NCBI GenBank assembly: GCA_028866275.1
Contig: JAGWIK010000001.1
Location: forward strand, 1 to 64,000
DNA from: Alphaproteobacteria bacterium
Lineage (GTDB): Bacteria > Pseudomonadota > Alphaproteobacteria > UBA9219
Reading direction: 5' to 3'
DNA: 64,000 nt
The notes below the pieces were generated by a model. It was not told the DNA's origin. It searched no databases and worked only from the letters and a program-made list of their open reading frames with translations. The translations under genes and the position numbers were made by a program. Below, one piece after another: positions 2,543 to 53,096 of this stretch (its first letter is position 1; each line of letters opens with the position of its first letter).

Positions 2543-5500
2543 TCTTAGATTCCTGCACCAGCTGCTGAAGCGGTCGAGATAGAGATAGACGACGGGTGTT
2601 GTAAAAAGCGTCAAGGCTTGCGACACCAAAAGCCCGCCGACGATGGCGATCCCCAAAGGCCGGCGCAGATCCGCGCCTTCGCCCCAGCCCAGCGCCAGCG
2701 GCAATGCGCCGAGCAGCGCGGCCGCCGTCGTCATCATAATAGGGCGGAAACGCAGAAGACAGGCGCGATAAATGGCGTCGCGCGCGGGGATGTTCTGGGT
2801 GCGCCGCGTTTCGACCGCGACGTCGATCATCATAATGGCGTTTTTCTTGACGATGCCGATCAGCAAAATAACGCCGATCAACCCCATGATGTCGAACTGC
2901 ACGTGGCAGACCATCAACGCGGCGACCGCGCCGACGCCTGCGGAAGGCAGGGTCGACAAAATCGTCAGGGGATGCACCAAACTCTCGTACAGAATGCCCA
3001 GCACGATATAGACGGCCAGAATGGCGGCCAGAATCAAAATAGGTTCGTTGGCCAGCGATTGCTGGAATACCTGCGCCGTGCCTTGGAACGCGCCATGAAT
3101 GGTGGCGGGCATATGAATGCGCGCTGATGCGTCGGCGATGGCTTTTTGCGCGTCGCTCAGCGATTTGCCGGGCGCGAGGTTGAATGAAATCGTGGTTGCG
3201 GCGAAATGGCCCTGATGATTGACCGACAAAGGGGTGGCGTCTGTCGCCACATGGGCGATAGCGGCCAGCGGAATCATGGTCTCCGCCGTTGTGCTGATCG
3301 CCGCACCGGTCGATGTGACGCCTTTGCCGGCCGCGGCAATGGCGTTGGTCGCGGCGTTGCGTGCGGCTGCGCTGCCTGTCGTGCCGCCGCTCGAAGCTTC
3401 GGTGCCGCTCAGGCTGCCGCCGGATGTGCTGATGTAAATCTGTTTCAGGCTGTCGGGGTTCTGCAGATATTGCGGCGCGACTTCCATCACGACATGATAT
3501 TGGTTAAGAGGATTATAAATCGTAGACACCTGGCGTTGGCCGAAGGCGTCATAGAGCGTGTTGTCGATTTGAGCGACATTGAGGCCGAGGCGCGCCGCAG
3601 TGTCGCGGTCGATGGTCAGGTTGCTTTCATATCCCGCGTCCTGCTGATCGGAATTGGCGTCGGTGATGACGCTTTCCTGTTTCAGGGCATCGGTCAGTTT
3701 CGGGGCCCATGCGCGGAGTTCATCAAGATTGTCGGATTGCAACGTGTATTGGTATTCGCCGTTGCCGGCCCGGCCGCCCATATGAATGTCCTGTCCGGCT
3801 TGCAAAAACAGCGCCGCGCCCGCGACATGCGATAAAGGTTTCCGCAGCCGGTTGATGACGTCCTGCGACGATACGCCGCGTTCGGCCAGCGGTTTCAGCT
3901 CCATGAAGATAAATCCGCTGTTGGTCGCGCCGCCGCCGGTGAAACCCGCAACGCTGGCGACCGCAGGGTCGCGGCGCAGGATGTTCACGAACTCGATCAT
4001 TTTCTGTTTCATGGCCTGGAACGAAATATCCTGATCGCCCATGACGCCACCCATGATCTGGCCCGTATCTTCCTCGGGGAAAAACCCTTTGGGCGTGGCG
4101 GCGAACAGCCAGACATTCAGCCCGACCGCCGCCAGCAGCACCAGCAAAACCAGCCGCCGGTGCCGTAACGCGCGCATTAACGTCAGATCGTAAGACCGGC
4201 GTAGCCGCGTGAACAGCCCTTCGCTGATATCGTAAAGCCGGTGCAGAAAGGATGGGCGGGCATGGCCATGGCGTTGCCCGCGTTCCAGCCAGCGCGCGCA
4301 CAGCATCGGCGTGGTCGACAAAGACACCGCCAGCGACACCAGAATGGCGACGGACAATGTGACCGCGAATTCGCGGAACAACCGGCCGACAATGCCGCCC
4401 ATCAGCAGGATCGGGGTGAAGACCGCGATCAGCGACAGGCTCATCGACAAAACGGTGAAGGTGACTTCGCGCGCGCCCAGCACAGCGGCTTTGAAACGCG
4501 GCACACCCGCTTCGATATGGCGCGTGATGTTTTCAAGAACGACGATAGCGTCGTCAACGACGAATCCTGTCGCCACCGTCATTGCCATCAAAGACAGATT
4601 GTCGAGGCTATAGCCCAGCAGATACATGACGCCGAACGTGCCGATCAGCGAAACCGGCACGGCGATGCTGGGGATAATGGCGGCGCGCGCGTTGCGCAGG
4701 AATAAAAACACCACCATGATGACAAGAAAGACGGAAAGCACCATCGTGCGTTCGACATCGTGCAGCGACGCGCGAATGGCGGGCGACCGGTCCAGCGCGA
4801 TGGACAGGTTGATGGCGGCGGGGATAGAGGCGCGCAGCGCGGGCAGCGCCGCCTTGATGGCGTCGATGGTGGCGATGATGTTGGCGCCGGGTTCCTTGGT
4901 GATGATCAGGACGATCGACGGTTTGCCGTCGAACAGCCCTTGATGGCGCAAATCCTCGACCGAATCCGTCACATTGGCGACGTCGCGCAAAAACACGGGC
5001 GCATTGTTGCGGTAGGCCACGATCAGGTTTTTGTAGTCGTCGGCATGTCTGGCTTGATCATCGGTATAAAGCTGGAAATGCCGGCCCTGTTCTTCCAGCG
5101 CACCCTTGGGGCTGTTGGCATTGGCGGCGGCCAAGGCTGCGCGGATGTCCTCAAGGCCGATGCCGTAATTGAACAAGGCGTTGGGGTTTAAATCCACGCG
5201 CACGGCGGGCAGGGAACTGCCGCCGACTTCGACCTGTCCCACGCCGTCGATCTGCGACAGTTTTTGCGCCAACACGCTGGAGGCGGAATCGTAAACCTGT
5301 CCGGGTGTCAGGGTGTCCGACGTCATCGCCAGCACGATAATGGGCGCATCGGCCGGGTTCATTTTGCGATAGGTCGGATTGGATTTCAGGCTGGCCGGTA
5401 AATCGGCGCGCGCGGCGTTGATGGCGGCCTGAACGTCCCGGGCCGCCCCGTCGATGTCGCGGTCAAGCCCGAATTGCAAGGTGATGCGCGTATTGCCGAC

Positions 5501-39372: not shown

Positions 39373-40374
39373 CTATCCCGCAATTGTTTCGGAAATGTTA
39401 CCCGCATCGCGCGCGTGCACTTCGATAGTGATGTGCGACAGCGCGGGCATGTCGGCCAAACGCGCTTTATAGGCATCGGGCGCCTGCGGCGCGGTGGCCA
39501 GCAGCGAAATAATGGCGCCGTAATGGCCCGGCCCGATTTGCCAGATATGCAGGTCGGTGACCATATCGCCGGCACTTTCAAGGCGGCGGCGAATGTCTTG
39601 CGGCAATTCTTTGCGCGGGACCATGTCAAGCAAAACGCGCCCGGCGTCGCGCATCAGCCCGTACGACCAGTTGGCGATAACCGCCGCGCCGACCATGCCC
39701 ATGACGGCATCCATCCACACCCAGCCGAAAGCCCATCCCGCCCCCAGCCCGGCGATCGCCAGCAATGACGTCGCCGCATCGGCGACAATGTGGATATAAG
39801 CGGCGCGCAGGTTGTTGTCGTGGTGATGGTGCCCGTGATGATGATCGTGGTGGTGGTCGTCTTCGTGAGGGTGATCGTCATCATGATGGTGGTCGCTTTC
39901 ATGGTGGCCGTCATGCAAAAACGCCGCGCTGGCGATATTGACGGCAAGGCCCAAAGCGGCCACCGCAATCGCTTCGCCAAAAGCAATAGGCACGGGATGC
40001 AGAAGGCGCGCGACGCTTTGGCCGACGATGAAAAGAGAAATCAGCGCCAGAATGACGGCGCTGGAAAAACCGGCCAGATCGCCCATCTTGCCGGTGCCAA
40101 AGGCGAAGGCCGGGTCGTTTTTGTGCCGCCGCGCATAGGCATAGGCGAGGGCCGAGATCAGCAAAGCGCCGGCATGCGTCGACATATGCCAGCCATCGGC
40201 GACCAAAGCCATCGATCCGAAAATCGTGCCGCCGGTTATTTCGGCGATCATCATGACGGCCGTCAGGGCGATGACAAAACGCGTCCGCCGTTCGTTGCGG
40301 TCATGATGCGCGCCGAGGAAAACATGCGTGTGTTGGTGGGCGGCGGCGGCATGGGGGTGTGTGGAAACAGGCAT
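39373..40374 (-). CDS. Cation diffusion facilitator (DmeF-like)
   Basis: MALVADGWHMSTHAGALLISALAYAYARRH; extended His-rich loop HHHDDDHPHEDDHHHDHHHGHHHHD. Confidence 0.9.
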   Translation of the reverse strand: MPVSTHPHAAAAHQHTHVFLGAHHDRNERRTRFVIALTAVMMIAEITGGTIFGSMALVADGWHMSTHAGALLISALAYAYARRHKNDPAFAFGTGKMGDLAGFSSAVILALISLFIVGQSVARLLHPVPIAFGEAIAVAALGLAVNIASAAFLHDGHHESDHHHDDDHPHEDDHHHDHHHGHHHHDNNLRAAYIHIVADAATSLLAIAGLGAGWAFGWVWMDAVMGMVGAAVIANWSYGLMRDAGRVLLDMVPRKELPQDIRRRLESAGDMVTDLHIWQIGPGHYGAIISLLATAPQAPDAYKARLADMPALSHITIEVHARDAGNISETIAG

Positions 40375-40528: not shown

Positions 40529-41770
40529 ATGGTCAAAAAGAGAGTTGAACGGATTGTTTTTCTGATTCGGGGATGTCTTTTGCCGTACCAATTGCCTGTG
40601 AATAAAAGGAGTTCCTCCTTTTCCCGTTCCTTGCTGCTTGCCGGGGTGCTGGTTCTGGCCGTGTCCGTTGCCGCGCCGGCGCGGGCCGCCGATACCGGCG
40701 TTGCCATGCCGACAAGCCTTGGGCCTGTTGCGGCTTCTGCCGCCGGACAGCAGGGACAGGTTGCGTATCCGTCAACAGCCCCCGCGCTGACATCGCCGGC
40801 CGCCGCCGCGCCTGTGTCGGCCCCGGCCGCCTCGACAGCGGGGGGGATCAACATCCCGACTCCGCCGCCGGCGTCCTCGCCCGCTTTTACGTCGGATGCC
40901 AATCAACTGGCCGCGCAGGCCGAACAGGCTGCATTGCAAGCGCAGACGCAGGCCGATGTCGCCGCCCAAAAGCGCGATCAGGAACATAATATCCAGTCAT
41001 TCGACAAGGCCGAACAGGGTTTGTTGCCTCTGTCGCCGGATCAGGTGCGCGGCCTGATGCTGCGGCTGGAACAGACGCAAAAGGCTGCGGAATTTCCCTA
41101 TGCCGGCCCGCCCAAGGGCGAAACGCGGATCTCGACGCTGTCGCTGGATCCCGGCGTGGAGCCTCCGCAAATCAATCTGGCCAGCGGTTACGTCACGACA
41201 ATTACAATGGTCGATGCGACGGGACAGCCTTGGCCCATCCTGGACGTGGGTGTCGGCGGCAATTTCGAAGTCTCCCCCACCCCGTCGGGCAGCCATATCG
41301 TGCGCGTGATGCCGTTAACGCGCGTCGGCACCGGCGATCTGTCGATCCTTCTGAAAGATTTGCCGACGCCGGTGATTTTCCGCCTGTCGGCGGGCGGCCC
41401 GACCGTTGATCTGCGTTATGATGCGCGCATCGCCAAGATGGGGCCGGGGGCTAAAATCCCGTTGATCAGCCGTCCGCGGCTCGAGGCGGGCGACCAGACC
41501 ATGACGCTGATTTTGGAAAATGCGCCGCCGTCGTCGGCCACGGTGATGAAGGTTGCGGGACTCGATGATCGCACCAGGGCGTGGGAGGTCGGCGGCAAGG
41601 TTTATGTGCGGACGCCTTTGACCCTGCTGTCGCCGGCATGGAACGCCAGCGAATCTTCCGACGATGGCATGACGGTTTATGAAATCGGCGATGCGCCTGT
41701 TCTTTTACTGTCCGACAACGGCGCAATGGTGCGCGCCCAAATTTCGCGGGACGTCCAACATGACAAATGA
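40529..41770 (+). CDS. dotH: Type IVB secretion DotH/IcmK-like protein
   Basis: Signal peptide SFSRSLLLAGVLVLAVSVAAPARA (GTG start at 40598 also possible); VTTITMVDATGQPWPILDVGVGGNFEVSP...LLKDLPTPVIFRLSAGGPTVDLRYDARI fits the IcmK/DotH family. Confidence 0.82.
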   Translation: MVKKRVERIVFLIRGCLLPYQLPVNKRSSSFSRSLLLAGVLVLAVSVAAPARAADTGVAMPTSLGPVAASAAGQQGQVAYPSTAPALTSPAAAAPVSAPAASTAGGINIPTPPPASSPAFTSDANQLAAQAEQAALQAQTQADVAAQKRDQEHNIQSFDKAEQGLLPLSPDQVRGLMLRLEQTQKAAEFPYAGPPKGETRISTLSLDPGVEPPQINLASGYVTTITMVDATGQPWPILDVGVGGNFEVSPTPSGSHIVRVMPLTRVGTGDLSILLKDLPTPVIFRLSAGGPTVDLRYDARIAKMGPGAKIPLISRPRLEAGDQTMTLILENAPPSSATVMKVAGLDDRTRAWEVGGKVYVRTPLTLLSPAWNASESSDDGMTVYEIGDAPVLLLSDNGAMVRAQISRDVQHDK

Positions 41771-43316
41771 ATTTCACGAACACGATGGCGGCGACGATTT
41801 CAACGAACATGAAATCGGCGTGGGCGACGAAGGCGCTGCGCCGGGCGGCGTCACCGGGCGTTTGACGTCGGCGTGGAAGACCCAGCCTGTCTTCAAGCTG
41901 ATGATGCTGATTTTTGCCGTCTTCGTCGTCGGCATTGCGGCATTTAATTTTCTCGGCGGCAGCAGCAACAGCGGCAACGATATAGCCCATCTGGCGCGCC
42001 CCCCCGGCATTAAGGAAGCCCCCGGCGGGGCGGTGTCGCCTTATATGCGCCAACAAACCGAAATGGCCAATCAGGAACGATCGGCCCAAGCCATCGCCAA
42101 TGGCGGCAGCGCTATTCCCACGCCGATCGGCCAGACGGCGGATGTCGGCAATATGGGCAACGACAAAGACGCCGCGCTGAACGAATTGCGCGCCGAAACC
42201 GAGCAGTTGAAGCAGCAGGTGCAGCAACAGCAGGTGCAGCAGGTGCAGCAGCAACAGCAGGTTCAGCAGCAACAGCAGAACCAGAATTTCGACAACACGC
42301 TGGCCGAAGCGATGCAACGCCAGATGCAGCAATTGATGGACAGCTGGGCCCCCAAAGGCATGAAGGACGTCACGGTGACGAGCCCCGAACAGGTTAAAGC
42401 CGAAGACGCCGCGGCGGCCAAGGCCGAAGCGGCGGCGACGGCCGCGACGCCTGCCGCCGCGACGGCCACCGAACAGAAAAAGATTCTGGTGTCGGCGGGA
42501 ACGGTCAGCTATGCGCAAATGTTGACCGAAGCCAATTCCGATGTGCCCGGGCCTATTCTCGCGCAAATCGTTTCCGGCCCCTTGTCCGGCGCGCGCGCCA
42601 TCGGCTCGTTCCAGGTTTCGCAGGGGTATGACGAATATCTGGTGTTAAAGTTCAGCATCGCCGACAAGAATGGCAGGGATTACAAGATCGACGCCATCGC
42701 GCTCGATCCCAATACGACGCTGGGCGGCATGGCGACCGAGGTTGACGATCGTTATCTGGTTCGGGTTGTTTTGCCCGCCGCTGCCGGATTCCTGCAGGGC
42801 ATGGGGGAGGCGTTGGGACAAGGCACATCCTCGATCACCACCAACGGCACGACGACGATTGCCAACACGACGGGCAATGGCTTCAAGCAGGGTTTGTATA
42901 ACGGCATGGGGCAGGCCGCCAACACCATGGGCCAGTTTTTCCAGAATCAGGCCAACCTGACCAAGCCATTGGTTCGTGTCGCCGCGGGCACGCCGATGGG
43001 CCTGTTCTTTACCGCGCCGGTTTACGATGTCGATGTTGCCACCACGCCGGTCAGTGCGACCCAGACCAATGCCGGGCTTTACCCGGGCGCGACCGTTACG
43101 GGTTACGGCAATGCCGCCGCCAATCCCTATGGTGCCAACCCCTATGGCGCCAATCCATACGGCGCCGCCGGCGCCACCGGAACGGCATCCGGTTCGCCCT
43201 ATCCCAATTACAACAACCCCGCTTATGGCTATACGAATACCGGCGTGACGCGCACCACGACGCCGGGGTATTTGTCGCCCTACAACGGGTACAGCCAGTT
43301 TACGACGGGGCAGTAA
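41760..43316 (+). CDS. dotG: Type IVB secretion DotG/IcmE-like protein with VirB10/TrbI-like C-terminal domain
   Basis: N-terminal TM, Q-rich coiled linker, VSAGTVSYAQMLTEANSDVPGPILAQIVSGPLSGARAIGSFQV...DAIALDPNTTLGGMATEVDDRYLVRVVLPAAAGFLQGMGEAL. Confidence 0.85.
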   Translation: MTNEFHEHDGGDDFNEHEIGVGDEGAAPGGVTGRLTSAWKTQPVFKLMMLIFAVFVVGIAAFNFLGGSSNSGNDIAHLARPPGIKEAPGGAVSPYMRQQTEMANQERSAQAIANGGSAIPTPIGQTADVGNMGNDKDAALNELRAETEQLKQQVQQQQVQQVQQQQQVQQQQQNQNFDNTLAEAMQRQMQQLMDSWAPKGMKDVTVTSPEQVKAEDAAAAKAEAAATAATPAAATATEQKKILVSAGTVSYAQMLTEANSDVPGPILAQIVSGPLSGARAIGSFQVSQGYDEYLVLKFSIADKNGRDYKIDAIALDPNTTLGGMATEVDDRYLVRVVLPAAAGFLQGMGEALGQGTSSITTNGTTTIANTTGNGFKQGLYNGMGQAANTMGQFFQNQANLTKPLVRVAAGTPMGLFFTAPVYDVDVATTPVSATQTNAGLYPGATVTGYGNAAANPYGANPYGANPYGAAGATGTASGSPYPNYNNPAYGYTNTGVTRTTTPGYLSPYNGYSQFTTGQ

Positions 43317-43456
43317 CCGGCGCGCATCCGCCGCGCTTTATATTGCCATGTTGAGATTCGGTGGCGTGTCGCCTAATATTGCGGCCTCGCCGGTTTGCCT
43401 CTCTTTTCACACAGTGCCTTGCCTTCTAATCGGGTTCGACCCCCAGGAGCTGCCAG

Positions 43457-44578
43457 ATGAACGACACCTTTGAATCTCACGAATCGGAAACCGATGCCGA
43501 ACATGCGGAAGTGCATGAAGCCCCGTCCGATTACGAATTCGCCGATGAACACAGCGCGACTGCGGAACATAGCGAAGAAGTCGAAGCCGTTGCCGAGACC
43601 AAAGGCCGTTCGCCCATCCTGCCGATCGCCGCGGCGATTGTGGGGGTTGCAGCGCTGGGCGGTGTGGCGTGGTGGCAATTTTCTTCGAATACGGCACCCG
43701 CACCGCCATCCATGACGGCCGCGCAGCCTTTCGTGCCTGTCGCCGTCAATCCGGCGACGCAAGCGTCTGCCGCGCCTCAGGCCGCAACGCCCGCCGCGCA
43801 ACCCGTCGAACCGGTGACGCCAACGCAAAATGCCGCGCCGTCTGCAATGGCCCCCGCGCCTGTGGCGCCCGTTCCTGCGACCTCCGTCCCTGTGGCTGCT
43901 GCGCCCGCCGCAGCACCTGAAACGTCCGTCGCGCCTGACAAGATGGCGAATGTGGCACCGTCCGTGCCGCCATCGGCGACGCCTGTGGAGAAATCGGTCG
44001 AAAAACCCGTCGATGCCGCTGCCGTGCCGCCTGCCGCGACAACGGCTGCGATGCCGGCGCCTGCGGCGTCGGTTCCTGCGGCCTCGCCTTCCGATCAGGC
44101 GCGCATCGATGCATTGACCGCACGCATGAACAATCTGCAATCGACGCTCGACCAGATCACGCAACAACTCGGCCAGATCAGCAAAACCGTCGACGCCGGA
44201 CATAACGCCGCCGCCGACGCATCAAACATGCCCTTGTCGCTGGGCACGGAAAATGTTGCCGAACGCCACGTCGCGCCGGTCGGGCCTGCTGCGCATCATA
44301 CGCACCACCATGTGACGCACACCGCATCCACACACCGCCATGTCGCCAAAGCCCGCCACGAAAGAACAAAATCGGCCATGGCAAAAAAAACCGTGACGAC
44401 CAAATGGGTGTTGCGCGCCGCCAGCCCCGGCCAGGCCTGGGTGGCGACAGACCCGACATCGGTTGATTTGAAACATCTGCAGGTCGGCGATACGTTGCCG
44501 GGCATCGGCCGCGTCGAAACCATCAACAATGTCGGCGGCACATGGACGGTTGTCGGCAGCAAGGGGTCGGTGCAGTAA
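43457..44578 (+). CDS. Type IVB secretion DotF/IcmG-like protein
   Basis: Acidic cytoplasmic N-terminus, single TM (ILPIAAAIVGVAALGGVAWW), Ala/Pro linker, coiled coil, C-terminal WVLRAASPGQAWVATDP...VGDTLPGIGRVETINNVGGTWTVVGSKG; position after dotG-like gene. Confidence 0.6.
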   Translation: MNDTFESHESETDAEHAEVHEAPSDYEFADEHSATAEHSEEVEAVAETKGRSPILPIAAAIVGVAALGGVAWWQFSSNTAPAPPSMTAAQPFVPVAVNPATQASAAPQAATPAAQPVEPVTPTQNAAPSAMAPAPVAPVPATSVPVAAAPAAAPETSVAPDKMANVAPSVPPSATPVEKSVEKPVDAAAVPPAATTAAMPAPAASVPAASPSDQARIDALTARMNNLQSTLDQITQQLGQISKTVDAGHNAAADASNMPLSLGTENVAERHVAPVGPAAHHTHHHVTHTASTHRHVAKARHERTKSAMAKKTVTTKWVLRAASPGQAWVATDPTSVDLKHLQVGDTLPGIGRVETINNVGGTWTVVGSKGSVQ

Positions 44579-44630: not shown

Positions 44631-45761
44631 TTATCTCTTGCCCAAGGCTTCCTTGACGCGCGACAGGAAGGATTCGCTTTCGGGGTGGGTTTTATGGGCA
44701 TCGGCCTCGGCGGCGAATTCCGCCAGCAATTCTTTTTGCCGTTTGGTCATATGTACCGGCGTTTCGACCGCAATTTCGACGTATAAATCGCCGCGATTGT
44801 TCGACCGCAGAACAGACATACCCTTGTGCCGCAACCGTGCGCGATGGCCCGATTGCGTGCCCTGGTCGATTTTGACTTCCGCCGTTTCGCCGTCGATGAC
44901 GGGGACTTCGATCGTGCCGCCCAGAGCCGCCACAGTCATGGCCACCGGCACGCGGCAATATAAATTCGCGCCGTCGCGTTGGAACACGGGGTGCTGCGCC
45001 ACGCCCAATATCACATATAAATCACCGGCATGGCCGCCGCGCGCGCCGGCTTCGCCTTCGCCCGCCAAACGAATGCGCATGCCGTCCTCGACCCCCGCCG
45101 GGATTTCGACGTCCAGCGTGCGTTGTTGCCGCACGCGCCCCAAACCGCCGCATTTCTTGCACGGGTTCTGGATAACGCGCCCCGCGCCCTGACAGGTGGG
45201 GCAGGTGCGTTCGACTGTGAAGAATCCTTGTTGCGCCCGTACGCGGCCATGGCCTTTGCACATGCCGCATTCGACCGGCGATGTGCCCGCCGCCGCGCCA
45301 GAGCCTTTGCAATCGTCGCATGTGGCCGAATTGACAATATCGATGCGTTTTGTGGCGCCCGTAAAGGCTTCTTCCAGCGTGATGTCGAGATCGTAACGCA
45401 AATCCGCGCCGCGTTGCGCGCCCTGTTGCGCCGATTGCCGCCGCCCGCCGCCCAGAATCTCGCCGAACATTTCGTCGAAAATGTCGGAAAAACCCGCGCC
45501 GAATTCGAAACCGCCGAAACCGCCGCCGCCGCCCTGTTCGAACGCGGCATGGCCGAAACGGTCATAGGCGGCGCGCCGCTGGTCGTCGCGCAAGACGTCA
45601 TAGGCTTCGTTGATTTCCTTGAATTTATGCTCGGCTTCGTGATTGCCGGGATTGCGGTCGGGGTGATATTGCATCGCCAGCTTGCGATAGGCTTTTTTCA
45701 GCTCGTCGGCCGACGCTCCGCGCGCTGCGCCCAGAAGCTCGTAATAATCTTTCTTGGCCAT
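44631..45761 (-). CDS. dnaJ: Chaperone DnaJ
   Basis: [41 protein letters not shown] region; four CxxCxGxG-type zinc motifs. Confidence 0.96.
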
Positions 45762-45958: not shown

Positions 45959-47977
45959 ATGTTGCCGTTCATGTTGCAGGGTATAGGCGCGTTGCTGGTT
46001 CTGGCCGTTGCGGCTGCGGCGTCCGGACGCAAAGGTTCCGGTTTCGTCTATCCCCTCGCCTTGTTGGCCTGTCTCGCCCTGCTGGGCGCGGATGCGATGT
46101 CGTTGGTCGGCGTTATGCCGGCGGAAAAATGCGCGCTTCCTTTCGGCCTTCCCCATGTCGGCGTGCATCTGCGGCTTGACCTGTTATCGGCCGCGTTCGG
46201 CGTCGTCGTCAATCTGGGTGGCGCGCTGGCCAGCCTGTACGGCATCGGATACGGGCGCGGCGAACGCGAACCGATGCGCGTGCTGCCGTTCTTTCCGGCC
46301 TTCATCGCGGGTATGAATCTGGTGCTGCTGGCCGACGACGCCTTTACCTTTCTGGTGGCGTGGGAATTTATGTCGCTGACGTCGTGGGCGATGGTGGTGT
46401 CGAACCACCGCGAAGCCGCCAACCGCGCCGCCGCCTATATCTATTTGCTTATGGCCAATGCCGGCACGGCGGCCTTGTTGTTTGCGTTCGGCGTTCTGGC
46501 GGGCGCGGGCGGCGATTACGGCTTCGACGCCATCCGTGCGGCGGCGCATCCAGGGTGGGTCGTCGGCGTCGCGGTGGCGATGGTATTGATCGGCGCAGGG
46601 TCGAAGGCGGGCGTCATGCCGCTGCATGTCTGGCTGCCGCAGGCGCACCCCGCCGCGCCCAGCCATGTGTCTGGTTTGATGAGCGGCGTGATGACCAAAG
46701 TGGCGATTTATGCCTTGATCCGCGTCATTTTCGACTTGTGCGGCAGCGGCGCGCATGCCGTGGCGTGGGGCTGGTCGGTTCCGATGCTGGTGCTGGGCGG
46801 TGTGACGGCGGCTTTTGGCATCCTGTATGCGTTGATGCAGCGCGACATTAAAAAATTGCTGGCCTATTCGACGGTGGAAAATATCGGATTCATCCTCGCC
46901 GCGCTGGGACTGGCCTTGGCTTTTCGCGCCAGCGCAATGCCCGTGGCGGCCGCGGTGGCGATGACGGCGGCATTGTTGCATGTCTTCAACCACTCTTTAT
47001 TCAAGAATTTGCTGTTCATGGGGGCGGGCGCGGTCGATCATGCTATGGGTACGCGCGACATCGAAAAAATGGGCGGGCTTATTCACCGCATGCCCGCGAC
47101 CGCGGTGATGGTTCTGGTCGCCTGCGCCGCCGCTGCGGCCTTGCCGCCGCTCAACGGCTTTGTGTCGGAATGGATGATTTTCCAATCCGTGCTGGCCAGC
47201 CCCGCGCTGCCGCAATCGATCATGCATTTCCTTGTACCGGCGGTGGGTATTCTGCTGGTGCTGGCGGCGGCTTTGGCGGCGTCGGGTTTCGTGCGCTTCT
47301 TCGGCATTGCCTTTCTGGGGCGCGCGCGCAGCGCCGAAGCCGGCCACGCTCACGAAGCCGATGGTTTTTCGCGCGCCGCGATGGGCGGTCTGGCGGTTCT
47401 GTGCGTCGTCGCCGGACTTGTGGCCGCGCCGTTGGCAACTGTTCTGGCTCCCTTGGTGCAGACCTTGACGGGGGGCGCGTTGCCCGATCAACAAACCGGC
47501 CCGGCCTTGTTGTCGCTGACGCCGTTCGACGCCGCGCGTAGTTCCTATAACGCGCCCTTGCTGCTGTTCTTTATCCTGTCGTCGGGATCGCTGACGGCAT
47601 GGATCATTCATATGTTCGCGTCGCGCCGCACCCGCCCTGCGCCCATCTGGGATTGCGGTTTTCCCTATGCCAACCCGATCGCGCAATATACGGCGTCGAG
47701 CTTCGCCCAGCCGATCCGCCGCATTTTCGGTTCCGTGCTGTTCCGCGCGCGCGAAGATATTGATATGCCGGCGCCGGACGAGATGCGCGCCGCGTCGATC
47801 AAGGTTCCCATGGTCGACCTGTTATGGAACCGGCTGTATGTGCCGGTGACCAAAGCCGTGTGGATTGTGGCCGACAAAGTCAATGCCGTGCAGGGCTTTT
47901 CGATCCGCCGCTATCTGGTTCTGATGTTCGCGGCGTTGATTATCCTTCTGGTCGTGGTGGCGTTATGGCATTCCTGA
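45959..47977 (+). CDS. hyfB: Hydrogenase-4 component B-like / complex I antiporter-like subunit
   Basis: WEFMSLTSWAMVVSNHREAANRAAAYIYLLMANAGTAALLFAFG; GSKAGVMPLHVWLPQAHPAAPSHVSGLMSGVMTKVAIYALIR. Confidence 0.9.
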   Translation: MLPFMLQGIGALLVLAVAAAASGRKGSGFVYPLALLACLALLGADAMSLVGVMPAEKCALPFGLPHVGVHLRLDLLSAAFGVVVNLGGALASLYGIGYGRGEREPMRVLPFFPAFIAGMNLVLLADDAFTFLVAWEFMSLTSWAMVVSNHREAANRAAAYIYLLMANAGTAALLFAFGVLAGAGGDYGFDAIRAAAHPGWVVGVAVAMVLIGAGSKAGVMPLHVWLPQAHPAAPSHVSGLMSGVMTKVAIYALIRVIFDLCGSGAHAVAWGWSVPMLVLGGVTAAFGILYALMQRDIKKLLAYSTVENIGFILAALGLALAFRASAMPVAAAVAMTAALLHVFNHSLFKNLLFMGAGAVDHAMGTRDIEKMGGLIHRMPATAVMVLVACAAAAALPPLNGFVSEWMIFQSVLASPALPQSIMHFLVPAVGILLVLAAALAASGFVRFFGIAFLGRARSAEAGHAHEADGFSRAAMGGLAVLCVVAGLVAAPLATVLAPLVQTLTGGALPDQQTGPALLSLTPFDAARSSYNAPLLLFFILSSGSLTAWIIHMFASRRTRPAPIWDCGFPYANPIAQYTASSFAQPIRRIFGSVLFRAREDIDMPAPDEMRAASIKVPMVDLLWNRLYVPVTKAVWIVADKVNAVQGFSIRRYLVLMFAALIILLVVVALWHS

Positions 47978-48930
47978 ACTCCAACCTTGTCGCGCAACTG
48001 GCGCAGATGTTTCTGGTCGTCCTTGTCGCGCCGTTGGTCACCGGCGTCGTGCGCAAGGTCAAGGCGCGGTTGTTGCGCCGCCGCGGCGCGTCGGTGCTGC
48101 AACCCTATTACGATTTGTGGAAATTGATGCGCAAGGAAACGGTGCCCGCGCCCAACGCGTCGTGGCTTTATCACGCCGCGCCCTATGCCCTGTTCGCGCT
48201 GACATGGGTGGCGGCGGCCTTGGTGCCGACTTTCGCCACGGGGCTGGGTTTCAACTGGGCGGCGGATCTGATCGTCATCGTCGGTTTGCTGGCGGCGGCG
48301 CGTTTCGCGCTGGCGCTGGCGGGCATGGATATCGGAACCGGCTTCGGCGGTCTGGGCGCGTCGCGCGAAATGATGATTTCCAGCTTCGCCGAACCGGCCA
48401 TGCTGATGGTGATGTTCGCGCTGGCGCTGGAAGCGGGCACGACGCAGTTGTCGTCGATTGCCGGATATCTGATTGCGCATCCGGCGGCGTTGCACATTTC
48501 ACTGGCGCTGGCTCTGGTGTCCTACATCATCGTGCTGCTGGCTGAAAATGCGCGCATTCCCGTTGACAACCCGTCAACGCATCTGGAACTGACGATGGTT
48601 CACGAAGCGATGGTTCTGGAATATTCGGGCCGCCATCTGGCGATGATCGAAGCGGCGGCGTTTTTAAAGCTTGTGCTTTACATGTCGATTTTCTCCTGCC
48701 TGTTCGTGCCGTTCGGTATGGTGACGTCCGACCGCACCGTGGCGACAATGGCGGCGGGGGCGGCATTGTATGTCGGTAAATTACTGTTGGGCGCGGCGGC
48801 GTTGGCGGTTGGCGAAACCAGCGTGGCTAAAATGCGCGTCTTCCGCGTCGGCGAATTTCTGGGCGTCGGTCTGGTGCTGGGGCTGTTGGCGCTGTTGCTG
48901 CATTTCGTCGCGGCGGCGGGGGTGAATTGA
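47965..48930 (+). CDS. hyfC: Hydrogenase-4 component C-like / NuoH-like subunit
   Basis: VVRKVKARLLRRRGASVLQPYYDLWKLMRKETVPA; ENARIPVDNPSTHLELTMVHEAMVLEYSG. Confidence 0.92.
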   Translation: MAFLNSNLVAQLAQMFLVVLVAPLVTGVVRKVKARLLRRRGASVLQPYYDLWKLMRKETVPAPNASWLYHAAPYALFALTWVAAALVPTFATGLGFNWAADLIVIVGLLAAARFALALAGMDIGTGFGGLGASREMMISSFAEPAMLMVMFALALEAGTTQLSSIAGYLIAHPAALHISLALALVSYIIVLLAENARIPVDNPSTHLELTMVHEAMVLEYSGRHLAMIEAAAFLKLVLYMSIFSCLFVPFGMVTSDRTVATMAAGAALYVGKLLLGAAALAVGETSVAKMRVFRVGEFLGVGLVLGLLALLLHFVAAAGVN

Positions 48931-48931
48931 C

Positions 48932-49600
48932 ATGAATACGCTTGGGTTCGATATTTCGCATTTCCTTGCCGGCGGCATGGTTGTCATCAGTTTTATGCTT
49001 TTGTATCAGCGCCGGTTGTCGAGCCTGCTCGACATCTTCGCTATTCAGGCGGCCGTGCTGGCCTTCGCCGTGGCCTGGCAGGCGCATATCCAGAACGCGC
49101 CGCATCTCTATATCACCGCTTTTATCGCGCTGACGGTCAAGGCGGGCGTTATTCCCGCCGCATTGCGCCGCATCACGCGCAAGCTGAAGATCCACCACGA
49201 AATCGACGAAGTCGTCGGCATGGGGCGGTTGCTGTTGTCGGGCGTCGCGCTGGTCGCGCTGGCCATTCTGGTCATGACGCCGGTGACAATGGATGCCTCG
49301 GCCTTCACGCGCGAAGATCTGGCCTTCGCTTTGTCGGTCATGCTGCTGGGCTTTTTGATGATGATCAGCCGCCACAACGCGGTCAGCCAGATCGTCGGAT
49401 TCATGTCGATGGAAAACGGGCTGGTGCTGGCCGCAACCGGGGCCAGCGGCATGCCGTTGGTGGTCGAAATCAGCGTCGCTTTTTCCATCCTGATCGCCTT
49501 GTTCGTGTTCGGCACATTCATTTTCCGCATTCGCGAACGTTTCGATACGGTCGATGTCAACGCGCTTGACCGTTTCCGGGGAGAAAGAAACAATGGTTGA
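48932..49600 (+). CDS. hyfE: Hydrogenase-4 component E-like membrane protein
   Basis: Position between hyfC- and hyfF-like genes; YQRRLSSLLDIFAIQAAVLAFAVAWQAH...RITRKLKIHHEIDEV...MENGLVLAATGASGMPLVVEISVAFSILIALFVFGTFIFRI. Confidence 0.85.
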   Translation: MNTLGFDISHFLAGGMVVISFMLLYQRRLSSLLDIFAIQAAVLAFAVAWQAHIQNAPHLYITAFIALTVKAGVIPAALRRITRKLKIHHEIDEVVGMGRLLLSGVALVALAILVMTPVTMDASAFTREDLAFALSVMLLGFLMMISRHNAVSQIVGFMSMENGLVLAATGASGMPLVVEISVAFSILIALFVFGTFIFRIRERFDTVDVNALDRFRGERNNG

Positions 49601-51044
49601 ATTAAGCACGGTTTCCAGCGCGGTCTATACCGTCGCCATTCCGGCTGTTGCCGCCTTGCTTTTGGCCGTCATGCGCGGCTATCGCACGTCGGCGTGGCTG
49701 AACGTTCTGGCGTCGTTCCTGACGTTTGTGGCCGGGGTTGCTTTATTCTGGACGCCGCGCCCGCTCAACGACATTTTCATCGTCGACGATTTTAATATCT
49801 ATCTTCTCGTTCTCAATACCTTTGTCGGCTTTACCACCAGCCTGTTCAGCGCCAGCTATATCCGCCACGAACTGGAAGACAAACGCCTGACGCCGCGCAT
49901 GCTGCGTTTCTACCATTCGATGTTTCAGGTCATGATGGGGGCGATGAATCTGTCGCTCATCGCCAACAATATGGGCCTGATGTGGGTCGGGCTGGAAGTC
50001 GCCACTTTGGTCACCGTGTTGATGGTCGGCATTTACCGCACCGAAGCGGCGATCGAAGCGGCGTGGAAATATTTCATCCTCGCCAGCGTCGGCATCAGCC
50101 TGGCGTTCTTCGGCACGATTCTGATTTATCTCGCGGCCCAGAAAGTATTGGGCGAAGGCCTGCCGTCGATGGCGTGGAGCCGTCTGGTCGCCGCCGCGCC
50201 GTCGCTCGACGCGCCGCTGCTCAGCCTCGCTTTCATTTTCTGCCTTGTCGGGTACGGCACCAAGGTCGGGCTTGCGCCTTTGCATGCGTGGTTGCCCGAC
50301 GCCCATGCCGAAGGGCCGACGCCGGTTTCTGCGGTGCTGTCGGGGTTGTTGCTCAATGTCGCTTTGTACGCCTTGCTGCGCGTCAAAATCGTGCTGTCGG
50401 CCAGCACCGCGCCCTTGCATCCGGGGCCGATTTTGATGGTCATGGGATTGTCTTCGCTGTTGTTCGCGGCGTTCATGTTGTACCGGCGGCGCGACATCAA
50501 ACGCTTTTTCGCCTATTCCTCGATCGAGCATATGGGCATCATTACCTTTGCGTTCGGCATGGGCGGGCCGCTGGCCAATCTGGCGGGGTTGTTGCATATG
50601 ACGATGCACAGCCTGACAAAATCCGGCATTTTCTTTGCCGTCGGCCATATCGCGCAAACCAAAGGCACGCAGAAATTCGCAGGCATTCGCGGCCTGAGCG
50701 TCAGCAACCCGATGCTGGCCTGGGGGCTTGCGCTTGGCGTGTTGGCCATTTCCGGCCTGCCACCCTTTGGCGTGTTCATGAGCGAATTCCTGCTGGTCAC
50801 CACGACCTTCGCGCGCGAACCCGCGCTGGCCGTTTTGCTGGTGCTGGGGCTGGTGGTCGCGTTCGGCGCGATGCTGATGCGGCTTCAGGATGTGTTGTTC
50901 GGCGAACCGACGCCGGAAAACCACAAAACCTATGCGTCGCCTTTGCCGTTTCTGGCGCATTTCGCGCTGGTGCTGACGGCGGGCATTTTTCTGCCTGAAC
51001 CGCTTTTGCGCTGGTTCGGGCAGGTTTCAGCCTTGCTGAAATAA
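49593..51044 (+). CDS. hyfF: Hydrogenase-4 component F-like / antiporter-like subunit
   Basis: MWVGLEVATLVTVLMVGIYRTEAAIEAAWKYFILASVGISLAFFGTILIY; GTKVGLAPLHAWLPDAHAEGPTPVSAVLSGLLLNVALYALLR. Confidence 0.92.
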   Translation: MVELSTVSSAVYTVAIPAVAALLLAVMRGYRTSAWLNVLASFLTFVAGVALFWTPRPLNDIFIVDDFNIYLLVLNTFVGFTTSLFSASYIRHELEDKRLTPRMLRFYHSMFQVMMGAMNLSLIANNMGLMWVGLEVATLVTVLMVGIYRTEAAIEAAWKYFILASVGISLAFFGTILIYLAAQKVLGEGLPSMAWSRLVAAAPSLDAPLLSLAFIFCLVGYGTKVGLAPLHAWLPDAHAEGPTPVSAVLSGLLLNVALYALLRVKIVLSASTAPLHPGPILMVMGLSSLLFAAFMLYRRRDIKRFFAYSSIEHMGIITFAFGMGGPLANLAGLLHMTMHSLTKSGIFFAVGHIAQTKGTQKFAGIRGLSVSNPMLAWGLALGVLAISGLPPFGVFMSEFLLVTTTFAREPALAVLLVLGLVVAFGAMLMRLQDVLFGEPTPENHKTYASPLPFLAHFALVLTAGIFLPEPLLRWFGQVSALLK

Positions 51045-51054
51045 GGGGGCTTTC

Positions 51055-52581
51055 ATGTTTTTTTCCACCCAACCCGTTTCGACCAAGCCGTGGCCGCGCT
51101 ATATCGTCGATGCCGCGACATGGAACAAATGCGCCGACGCTTTTGCGGCGGGTACGCACAGCCTGTTCGGTCTGTGGGCCGACAGCCATCTGGACAATCC
51201 GGCGGCGGGTGCTGAAATCCATATGGCCATTTATGAAAACGCCACGCACAAACTGGCCGTGGCGACATTGCCCGCGCCGGATGGCGTGTTTCCGTCGGTC
51301 GCGCGCAAACATGCGCCCGCCGCGCGGCTGGAACGCACGATTATGGATATGCACGGGCTGCGCGCCGAGGGCGCCGTCGATACCCGCGCCTGGCTCGACC
51401 ACGGCAAATGGCGACAGGCGCAGCCGCTGGCCGTCCAGCCCGCGCCGCGCGGCGATGTTGCCACCGCCGTGGCCGATTACGCGTTTTTACCGGTCGACGG
51501 CGAAGGGCTGCACGAAGTCCCCGTCGGCCCCATTCACGCCGGCATCATCGAACCCGGCCATTTCCGTTTTTCCGCCAATGGCGAAGCGGTGGTGCGGCTC
51601 GAAGAAAAACTGGGCTATGTCCACAAAGGCATTGAAAAACTGTTTATCGGCGCGGATATCGCGCGCGGCGCCAAACTGGCGGGCCGCATTTCGGGCGACA
51701 GCACGGTGGCCTATGCCTTTGCCTATGCCCGGGCCGTCGAACAGGCGACCGGCACGGTTGCGCCGCCGCGCGCGCTTTATCTGCGCGCCCTGATGGCCGA
51801 ACTGGAACGCATCGCCAACCATTTCGGCGATGTCGGCGCGATCTGCAACGACGCGGCCTTTGCCTTTATGCTGGCGCATACCGGCATTTTGCGCGAAGAA
51901 ACGCTGCAACTGTGCCACGCCCTGTTCGGACACCGTTTGATGATGGATGTCATCGTGCCCGGCGGGGTGACGGCGGATATCGATGCGGCGGGCGCGGATA
52001 AAGTGCGCGCGTGGATGGCCGCGGCCGAAAAACGCTTCGATAAATTGATGCGCATATACGACGATGCCGCGTCGCTGAAGGACCGCACGAACAACACCGG
52101 TCATGTATCGCGCAAACTGGTCGACCGTTTCGGCGCGGGCGGTTATGTCGGCCGCGCGTCGGGCCGCGCTTTCGACGCGCGCAAAAATCTGCCCTATGCG
52201 CCTTATGACACATTGAATTTCGACATGCCGGTGCTGCATACCGGCGATGTCAATGCGCGGTTGTGGATCCGGCGTATCGAAATCGCGCAAAGCTTCGCGA
52301 TGATCGCGCAACTTCTCGACGCGATGCCTGCGGGCGCTCTTTGCGCGCCTGTCGCCGCGACAACGGCTGGCGAAGGCATCGGCGTGGTCGAAGCGTTTCG
52401 CGGCGATGTGTTGGTGTGGCTGCGCCTCGGCGCCGACGGCAACATCGCGCGTTGCCATCCGCGCGATGCGTCGTGGTTTCAATGGCCGCTGCTCGAAGCG
52501 TCGATCGAAAACAACATCATCGCGGATTTTCCGCTGTGTAATAAATCCTTCAACTGTTCCTATGCGGGGCATGATCTATGA
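51055..52581 (+). CDS. hyfG: HyfG-like / NuoCD-like large subunit lacking the canonical N-terminal Ni-Fe CxxC (Ehr-like)
   Basis: LGYVHKGIEKLFIGADIARGAKLAGRISGDSTVAYAFAYARAVE...ELERIANHFGDVGAICND; C-terminus DFPLCNKSFNCSYAGHDL. Confidence 0.88.
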   Translation: MFFSTQPVSTKPWPRYIVDAATWNKCADAFAAGTHSLFGLWADSHLDNPAAGAEIHMAIYENATHKLAVATLPAPDGVFPSVARKHAPAARLERTIMDMHGLRAEGAVDTRAWLDHGKWRQAQPLAVQPAPRGDVATAVADYAFLPVDGEGLHEVPVGPIHAGIIEPGHFRFSANGEAVVRLEEKLGYVHKGIEKLFIGADIARGAKLAGRISGDSTVAYAFAYARAVEQATGTVAPPRALYLRALMAELERIANHFGDVGAICNDAAFAFMLAHTGILREETLQLCHALFGHRLMMDVIVPGGVTADIDAAGADKVRAWMAAAEKRFDKLMRIYDDAASLKDRTNNTGHVSRKLVDRFGAGGYVGRASGRAFDARKNLPYAPYDTLNFDMPVLHTGDVNARLWIRRIEIAQSFAMIAQLLDAMPAGALCAPVAATTAGEGIGVVEAFRGDVLVWLRLGADGNIARCHPRDASWFQWPLLEASIENNIIADFPLCNKSFNCSYAGHDL

Positions 52582-53096
52582 AAGACATGATGCTCAAATC
52601 GCTGGTGACGCCCGCCGTCACCATTCCCGCCCCCAAACCCGACGACGCGGCTTTGGCCGAGCTGGCGCGCGCCGTCAACGAACGGTCGCGGCAATTACTG
52701 GGCCATTCGCTGGCCATTCGCGAAGTCGATGCCGGGTCGTGCAACGGGTGCGAATTGGAAATTCACGCCATTAACAACGCCATTTACGATGTCGAACGTT
52801 TCGGCATTAAATTCACGGCGTCACCCAAACATGCCGATGTTTTGCTGGTGACGGGGCCGGTCACCGAAAATATGAAATTCGCGCTGCAACGTGCCTATGA
52901 CGTCACGCCCGACCCCAAATGGGTCGTGGCCGTCGGCGATTGCGCCTGTACCGGCGGTGTGTTCGCGGGTTCCTACGCCTGCGCCGGCAGCGTCAAAGAC
53001 ATCGTGCCGGTCGATCTGCATATCAAAGGCTGCCCGCCGACGCCTCTCGACCTGTTGCGCGGGTTGCTGGCTTTGATGGAAACCGTTTCACGCTGA
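52578..53096 (+). CDS. hyfI: HyfI-like / NuoB-like Fe-S small subunit
   Basis: VDAGSCNGCELEIHAINN, GDCACTGGVFAGSYA, HIKGCPPTPLDLLRGLL: cluster cysteines present. Confidence 0.9.
   Translation: MKDMMLKSLVTPAVTIPAPKPDDAALAELARAVNERSRQLLGHSLAIREVDAGSCNGCELEIHAINNAIYDVERFGIKFTASPKHADVLLVTGPVTENMKFALQRAYDVTPDPKWVVAVGDCACTGGVFAGSYACAGSVKDIVPVDLHIKGCPPTPLDLLRGLLALMETVSR

What the first reader, a model, noticed from the sequence alone, without database searches (positions are those of the whole stretch)
40529..44578. Isolated type IVB secretion core trio (dotH-dotG-dotF-like) without the rest of the apparatus
Three consecutive plus-strand genes look like DotH/IcmK, DotG/IcmE and DotF/IcmG, in the same order as the Legionella icmK-icmE-icmG segment. 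In Dot/Icm systems these belong to the outer-membrane/core and envelope-spanning part. Here they are bounded by a CDF metal transporter and dnaJ, with no DotC, DotD, DotA, DotI/L, DotB or DotO recognisable in the window. Either the system is scattered over the genome, as reported in some intracellular bacteria, or this is a minimal envelope conduit reused for another purpose.
Basis: partly seen in the sequence, partly recalled or inferred. Interest (0 to 1): 0.75.

Follow-up and report, generated by a model that had tools for sequence, protein, structure and literature searches.

The report
Scattered Dot/Icm-type secretion system piece
The three genes are real parts of a Legionella-like secretion machine, and they only look isolated: the other core parts sit elsewhere in the same genome, because one ancestral gene cluster has broken into about eight pieces in this bacterial genus.

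Summary
ORFs at 40529-44578 are DotH, DotG and DotF of a type IVB (Dot/Icm, MPF_I) secretion system; their best Protein Data Bank hits are the Legionella proteins of the same names. "Without the rest of the apparatus" holds only for the 64-kb window. The same 2.19-Mb genome also encodes DotA, DotB, DotC, DotD, DotE, DotL, DotM, DotN, DotO, a probable DotP and two tandem DotI, at seven other places on six other contigs. In sister genera and families these genes form one same-strand cluster: I-I2-H-G-F-E-P-N-O-M-x-L-...-D-C-B. DotH occurs in 23 of 25 good genomes of the order. The cluster has come apart more than once; in the window's genus dotI-dotI2 stayed beside aconitase while dotH-G-F moved. 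Most likely it is a complete chromosomal T4BSS translocating proteins, since seven DotH-bearing genomes lack all three relaxase families tested; that function is inferred. The organism appears alphaproteobacterial, order not established. A paper (PMC9418006) already reports such systems in some Micavibrionales. It is a known kind with an unusually dispersed layout.

The parts
40529..41770 (+). dotH (icmK/traN-like), outer-membrane core component; signal-peptide-like N-terminus
   Evidence: PF12293 E=4e-71; PDB 6x62 IcmK/DotH E=1e-37; DotH in 23 of 25 order genomes
41760..43316 (+). dotG (icmE/traO/VirB10-like), envelope-spanning core component, about 518 aa (half the length of Legionella DotG); likely start 41760, first listed ATG 41679
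   Evidence: PF03743 E=1e-12; NF033900 E=7e-52, TraO model E=1e-27; PDB 9ngw/7muc IcmE E=2e-26; start read from sequence
43457..44578 (+). dotF (icmG-like), one apparent TM segment, variable linker, conserved C-terminal W-LRA-PG-AWV...GD...PG-G-V motif
   Evidence: NF038218 E=7e-7; alignment of 16 homologues; profile against PDB best hit Legionella DotF 7muc_AF E=3e-5
39373..40374 (-). flanking CDF cation-efflux transporter (context, not part of the system)
   Evidence: PF01545 E=1e-32
44631..45761 (-). flanking dnaJ (context, not part of the system)
   Evidence: PF00226/PF01556/PF00684

Best explanation
The trio is a fragment of a chromosomal type IVB (Dot/Icm-like, MPF_I) secretion system with a full core set, and that system's once continuous gene cluster has been broken into about eight pieces in this genus. 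SHOWN by sequence: in this genome dotH-dotG-dotF (the window), dotI-dotI2 (C46), dotE-P-N (C13), dotO (C14), dotM plus a conserved 158-aa gene (C9, 70-72 kb), dotL (C45), dotA plus accessory genes (C49) and dotD-C-B (C9, 0.3-3 kb); and in sister lineages most of the same genes in one cluster, I-I2-H-G-F-E-P-N-O-M-x-L-...-D-C-B. INFERRED from the known families: DotC-D-H-G-F form the outer-membrane and envelope-spanning core; DotA, DotE, DotP and the two DotI (DotI2 standing in for DotJ) form the inner-membrane part; DotB and DotO power assembly and secretion; DotL-M-N, perhaps with the 158-aa protein, recruit substrates. INFERRED and less certain: the main job is moving proteins into neighbouring cells rather than conjugative DNA transfer. 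The separate pieces would then have to be expressed and assembled together.
For: Identity of the trio. Rest of the machine: DotB TIGR02524 410 bits against 244 for plasmid TraJ; DotC PF16932 E=1e-75; DotD PF16816 E=7e-29; DotI PF11393 E=5e-49 and 3e-38, one copy above the NF038072 DotI cut-off; DotL NF041447 TrbC E=2e-107; DotO E=1e-186 to Gluconobacter pGOX1 DotO; DotA TIGR04346 E=7e-97; DotM NF033890 E=1e-51, DotN NF038221 E=4e-24, DotE as TraQ NF033883 E=3e-13. Walker A motifs in DotB, DotO and DotL. Synteny: (G023, G024, G013, G014, G010), continued downstream (G024, G023, G014). DotI beside aconitase in G000, G024, G023 and G028. DotH-DotI linked in 11 genomes and unlinked in 9 (positions); the DotH tree puts the window's genus in one clade, 100/98, with at least 4 changes of linkage, 2 forced by well supported branches. 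DotI in 28 of 32 order genomes and 0 of 7 from other orders. Seven DotH-bearing genomes have no PF03432, PF08751 or PF03389 relaxase, and G027, where no DotH or DotI was found, has a relaxase.
Against: Expression, assembly and substrates are unknown. DotF and DotP are assigned on weaker evidence: DotF below the curated cut-off, DotP by 33% identity to a positional homologue over 131 aa with no family hit. The accessory parts IcmS, IcmW, IcmQ, IcmF, DotU, DotV, DotK, IcmT and IcmX were not searched genome-wide; the unnamed genes scanned gave no such hit. Relaxase families MOBH, MOBC and MOBV were not tested, and the window's own genome has four small PF03432 relaxase genes on short contigs, so DNA transfer through this machine is not excluded. 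Because the window's genome is a draft in 78 contigs, the distances between its fragments are not known.
Confidence: 0.8

Rival explanations
1. The trio is a minimal, self-sufficient envelope conduit reused for something else.
For: The trio stands alone in its neighbourhood and has been moved as a unit within the genus.
Against: All other core genes, including the ATPases DotB, DotO and DotL, are in the same genome and in one cluster with the trio in sister lineages. G027 lacks both DotI and DotH, as expected if they are lost together.
Confidence: 0.04
2. It is a conjugation machine (IncI-like MPF_I), either an old integrated element or a helper used by mobilizable islands in the genome.
For: MPF_I conjugation plasmids carry homologues of these genes. 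The window's genome has four small PF03432 (MOBP-type) relaxase genes on short contigs.
Against: No relaxase was seen among the cluster genes identified. Seven DotH-bearing genomes lack PF03432, PF08751 and PF03389. The system is almost fixed in the order and DotB is closer to the Dot/Icm model than to plasmid TraJ.
Confidence: 0.2
3. Assembly or binning artefact: the trio or the other pieces come from another organism or a misjoined contig.
For: The genome is a 78-contig draft.
Against: The same separation of dotI from dotH is seen in five other congeners, including one assembly with 10 contigs, and in G028, G011 and G015. Trio GC is 0.62 against 0.60 for the window. Contamination is given as 1.26%.
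Confidence: 0.03

Closest known systems
Dot/Icm T4BSS of Legionella and Coxiella
   Same: DotA, B, C, D, E, F, G, H, I, L, M, N and O found by sequence, DotP likely; gene order I-H-G-F-E-P-N-O in sister lineages matches the Legionella icmL-K-E-G-C-D-J-B order (Legionella order from general knowledge); tandem DotI copies as PMC11338181 reports for Coxiella, which lacks DotJ
   Different: DotG about half the Legionella length (about 518 against 1048 aa); DotI2 in place of short DotJ; lytic transglycosylase and unnamed conserved genes in the set; eight loci in this genome; IcmS, W, Q and F not tested
pT4SSi reported in seven marine Micavibrionales and in Comchoano (PMC9418006)
   Same: Dot/Icm-type system outside Legionella; Comchoano genomes also have some components away from the main cluster (for example IcmE)
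   Different: There most components remain clustered; identity of the present order with Micavibrionales is not shown here
IncI/MPF_I conjugation systems (R64 type; Gluconobacter pGOX1)
   Same: Homologous DotA, O, H, G, I, D and C; similar gene neighbours
   Different: pGOX1 is typed conjugative with a MOBF relaxase; TrwC-family (PF08751) relaxases are absent from all 25 order genomes; no relaxase seen in the clusters here

Membership tests
Type IVB secretion system (MPF_I / Dot-Icm superfamily) | Core complex DotC, DotD, DotH, DotG, DotF | tested here: met
   (DotF on weaker evidence)
Type IVB secretion system (MPF_I / Dot-Icm superfamily) | ATPases DotB and DotO and coupling ATPase DotL with nucleotide-binding motifs | tested here: met
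Type IVB secretion system (MPF_I / Dot-Icm superfamily) | Inner-membrane DotA, DotE, DotI, DotP | tested here: met
   DotP only by position and 33% identity
Type IVB secretion system (MPF_I / Dot-Icm superfamily) | Ancestral gene order shared with icm/tra clusters | tested here: met
   met in sister lineages, broken up in the window's genome
Effector-translocating Dot/Icm (as in Legionella/Coxiella) | Coupling complex DotL-DotM-DotN | tested here: met
   (DotM and DotN below curated cut-offs in this genome; DotN above cut-off in G024)
Effector-translocating Dot/Icm (as in Legionella/Coxiella) | Adaptors IcmS, IcmW, IcmQ and IcmF/DotU | not tested
Effector-translocating Dot/Icm (as in Legionella/Coxiella) | No dedicated relaxase | tested here: inconclusive
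   no relaxase seen in the clusters; PF03432, PF08751 and PF03389 absent in 7 DotH-bearing genomes, but four unlinked PF03432 genes in this genome and other MOB families untested
Effector-translocating Dot/Icm (as in Legionella/Coxiella) | Translocates effector proteins into another cell | not testable with these tools
   needs experiment
IncI-type conjugation system | Relaxase and oriT linked to the transfer genes | tested here: inconclusive
   no relaxase seen among the cluster genes identified in G023, G024, G013, G014; not every gene was scanned and oriT was not searched

The most novel reading that the evidence does not exclude
A vertically inherited, relaxase-free Dot/Icm system that is near-universal in an apparently alphaproteobacterial order and works although its genes are dispersed over the chromosome, perhaps injecting proteins into bacterial or protist partners, with a new coupling-complex subunit (the 158-aa protein encoded beside dotM) in place of IcmS/IcmW.
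Probability: 0.25. Interest if true: 0.7.

Novelty: new member of a known kind. Interest (0 to 1): 0.4.

Why it matters
The apparatus looks incomplete locally but is complete globally, so surveys that require co-localised genes would undercount T4BSS in such genomes; the first Micavibrio genome paper, for instance, found no evidence of a type III or IV system (PMC3189940), though whether that organism belongs to this order is not shown. The lineage offers a natural series from one intact cluster to about eight pieces, with dotH-dotI linkage changing at least four times on the DotH tree, which is useful for asking why secretion operons stay together or fall apart. The conserved unnamed genes in the cluster are candidate new T4BSS components.

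Tried and rejected
AAA_10 (PF12846) found no DotO in this genome; a plasmid DotO as query did, so the negative was a limit of the profile. The other hits of the DotB model are much weaker and were taken as other T2S/T4P-type ATPases, without further test. A minimal conduit, a boundary misassembly and contamination were considered and rejected (see rivals). Whether DotH is nearer to Legionella or to plasmid homologues could not be decided from scores (about 133 against 139 bits, different programs).

Full report
1. The observation. Three plus-strand ORFs at 40529-44578 are DotH (PF12293, E=4e-71), DotG (TrbI domain E=1e-12; NCBIfam IcmE/DotG E=7e-52 against 1e-27 for plasmid TraO) and DotF (NCBIfam IcmG/DotF E=7e-7). 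Against solved structures DotH hits only Legionella IcmK/DotH (6x62, E=1e-37), DotG hits Legionella IcmE/DotG first (9ngw, E=2e-26), and a profile of 16 DotF homologues has Legionella DotF as its best hit (7muc_AF, E=3e-5); most other hits of that profile are coiled coils, but its weak third segment pairs the conserved C-terminal motif of the family with Legionella DotF 210-252. dotG probably starts at 41760, overlapping dotH by 11 bp (sequence). The flanks are a CDF transporter and DnaJ on the other strand.

2. The rest of the machine. The genome (G000, 2.19 Mb, 78 contigs, 100% complete, 1.26% contamination) contains: dotD-dotC-dotB at C9:262-3003 (PF16816 E=7e-29; PF16932 E=1e-75; TIGR02524 410 bits against 244 for plasmid TraJ); two tandem dotI at C46:14856-16243; dotL at C45:49379-51835; dotO at C14:78116-81106; dotA at C49:5266-8313 (TIGR04346 E=7e-97); dotE-dotP-dotN at C13:28088-30304 and dotM at C9:70000-71256, found with one joined query of four relatives' proteins and named by profiles except DotP. 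DotB, DotO and DotL have Walker A motifs. With the window this makes eight loci on seven contigs.

3. Why it looks isolated. In five genomes of sister genera or families the genes follow each other on one strand: dotI-dotI2-dotH-dotG-dotF-dotE-dotP-dotN(-dotO-dotM) (G024, G023, G013, G014, and in G010 to dotN, with small genes not always called). In G024, G023 and G014 the cluster goes on with a small unnamed gene, dotL, further genes, a 282-aa-type protein, a lytic transglycosylase, a further protein (thioredoxin-like in G024, PF13098 E=1e-4, below cut-off) and dotD-dotC-dotB (dotD was not called in G024, and dotB of G014 was not identified in the stretch read). In the window's genus this cluster is in pieces. 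dotI-dotI2 still lie beside aconitase, as they do in G024, G023 and G028, so it is dotH-G-F that moved. In several congeners the trio lies between dnaA and secA (DnaA and SecA named by sequence inspection only); in the window it lies between the CDF gene and dnaJ, with the secA homologue at 16-19 kb and the dnaA-like gene near 72 kb of the same contig, so local rearrangement continued. In G006 dotH-dotG are even inverted relative to dotF. From the positions, dotI and dotH are linked in 11 genomes, unlinked in 9 and undetermined in 3. On a DotH tree the window's genus forms a clade (100/98) and the label needs at least 4 changes, 2 of them forced by well supported branches; the tree is of one protein and many inner branches are weak.

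4. Distribution. DotI is found in 28 of 32 genomes of the order and in none of 7 from other orders of the class; DotH in 23 of 25 order genomes at least 90% complete. In G027 neither was found. Near-universal presence suggests old inheritance, but no tree against outside systems was made.

5. What it does. The set fits a working T4BSS: core complex, inner-membrane parts, assembly and secretion ATPases, coupling proteins. MPF_I machines serve conjugation or effector injection. No relaxase was seen among the cluster genes identified. The relaxase families PF03432, PF08751 and PF03389 are all absent from G002, G011, G013, G023, G025, G026 and G029, which have DotH, while G027, without DotH, has one. 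This favours protein translocation, but MOBH, MOBC and MOBV were not tested, and the window's genome has four small unlinked relaxase genes on short contigs whose elements could use the machine. The target cell is unknown.

6. What is known. Dot/Icm-type systems outside Legionella are reported, including in seven marine Micavibrionales and in Comchoano, where IcmE or IcmX/W can lie apart from the cluster (PMC9418006). Coxiella has a tandem DotI in place of DotJ and icmHF far from the rest (PMC11338181). The Micavibrio ARL-13 paper found no evidence of a type III or IV system (PMC3189940). The order of the present genome could not be named; the nearest named records are 'Alphaproteobacteria bacterium' and 'uncultured proteobacterium' MAGs. 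The system is therefore filed as a new member of a known kind; what is unusual is the degree and the repeated occurrence of its dispersal.

Noticed in passing
window 45959-53096: Plus-strand cluster of hydrogenase-4-like membrane subunits (HyfB and HyfF at E about 1e-234) with NuoD/NuoC-like and NuoB-like subunits; the large subunit scores as complex I 49 kDa rather than as a full NiFe hydrogenase, so whether it is a hydrogenase is open.
   Followed up: partly
L076:9310-9786 (G000 C9:71310-71786): 158-aa gene after dotM, homologous to the gene between dotM and dotL in relatives (40-46% identity to two of them) with no Pfam or NCBIfam hit: candidate new coupling-complex component.
   Followed up: partly
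L029:505-4372 (G000 C49); L069, L071, L072: Lytic transglycosylase and a 282-aa protein of no known family are conserved in the clusters of relatives (52-65% identity) and lie near dotA in this genome.
   Followed up: partly
L020:4972-7593 (G000 C9): 873-aa protein with T5SS/PEP-CTERM-associated repeats downstream of dotD-C-B, opposite strand; a second short ORF at 3000-3425 has a nearly identical C-terminal end.
   Followed up: no
G000 C22, C32, C37, C62: Four small PF03432 relaxase genes (260-296 aa frames), possibly on mobilizable islands.
   Followed up: no
L064 (G006 C146:32001-48252): dotH-dotG are inverted relative to dotF and secA, so even the trio is broken in this congener.
   Followed up: no
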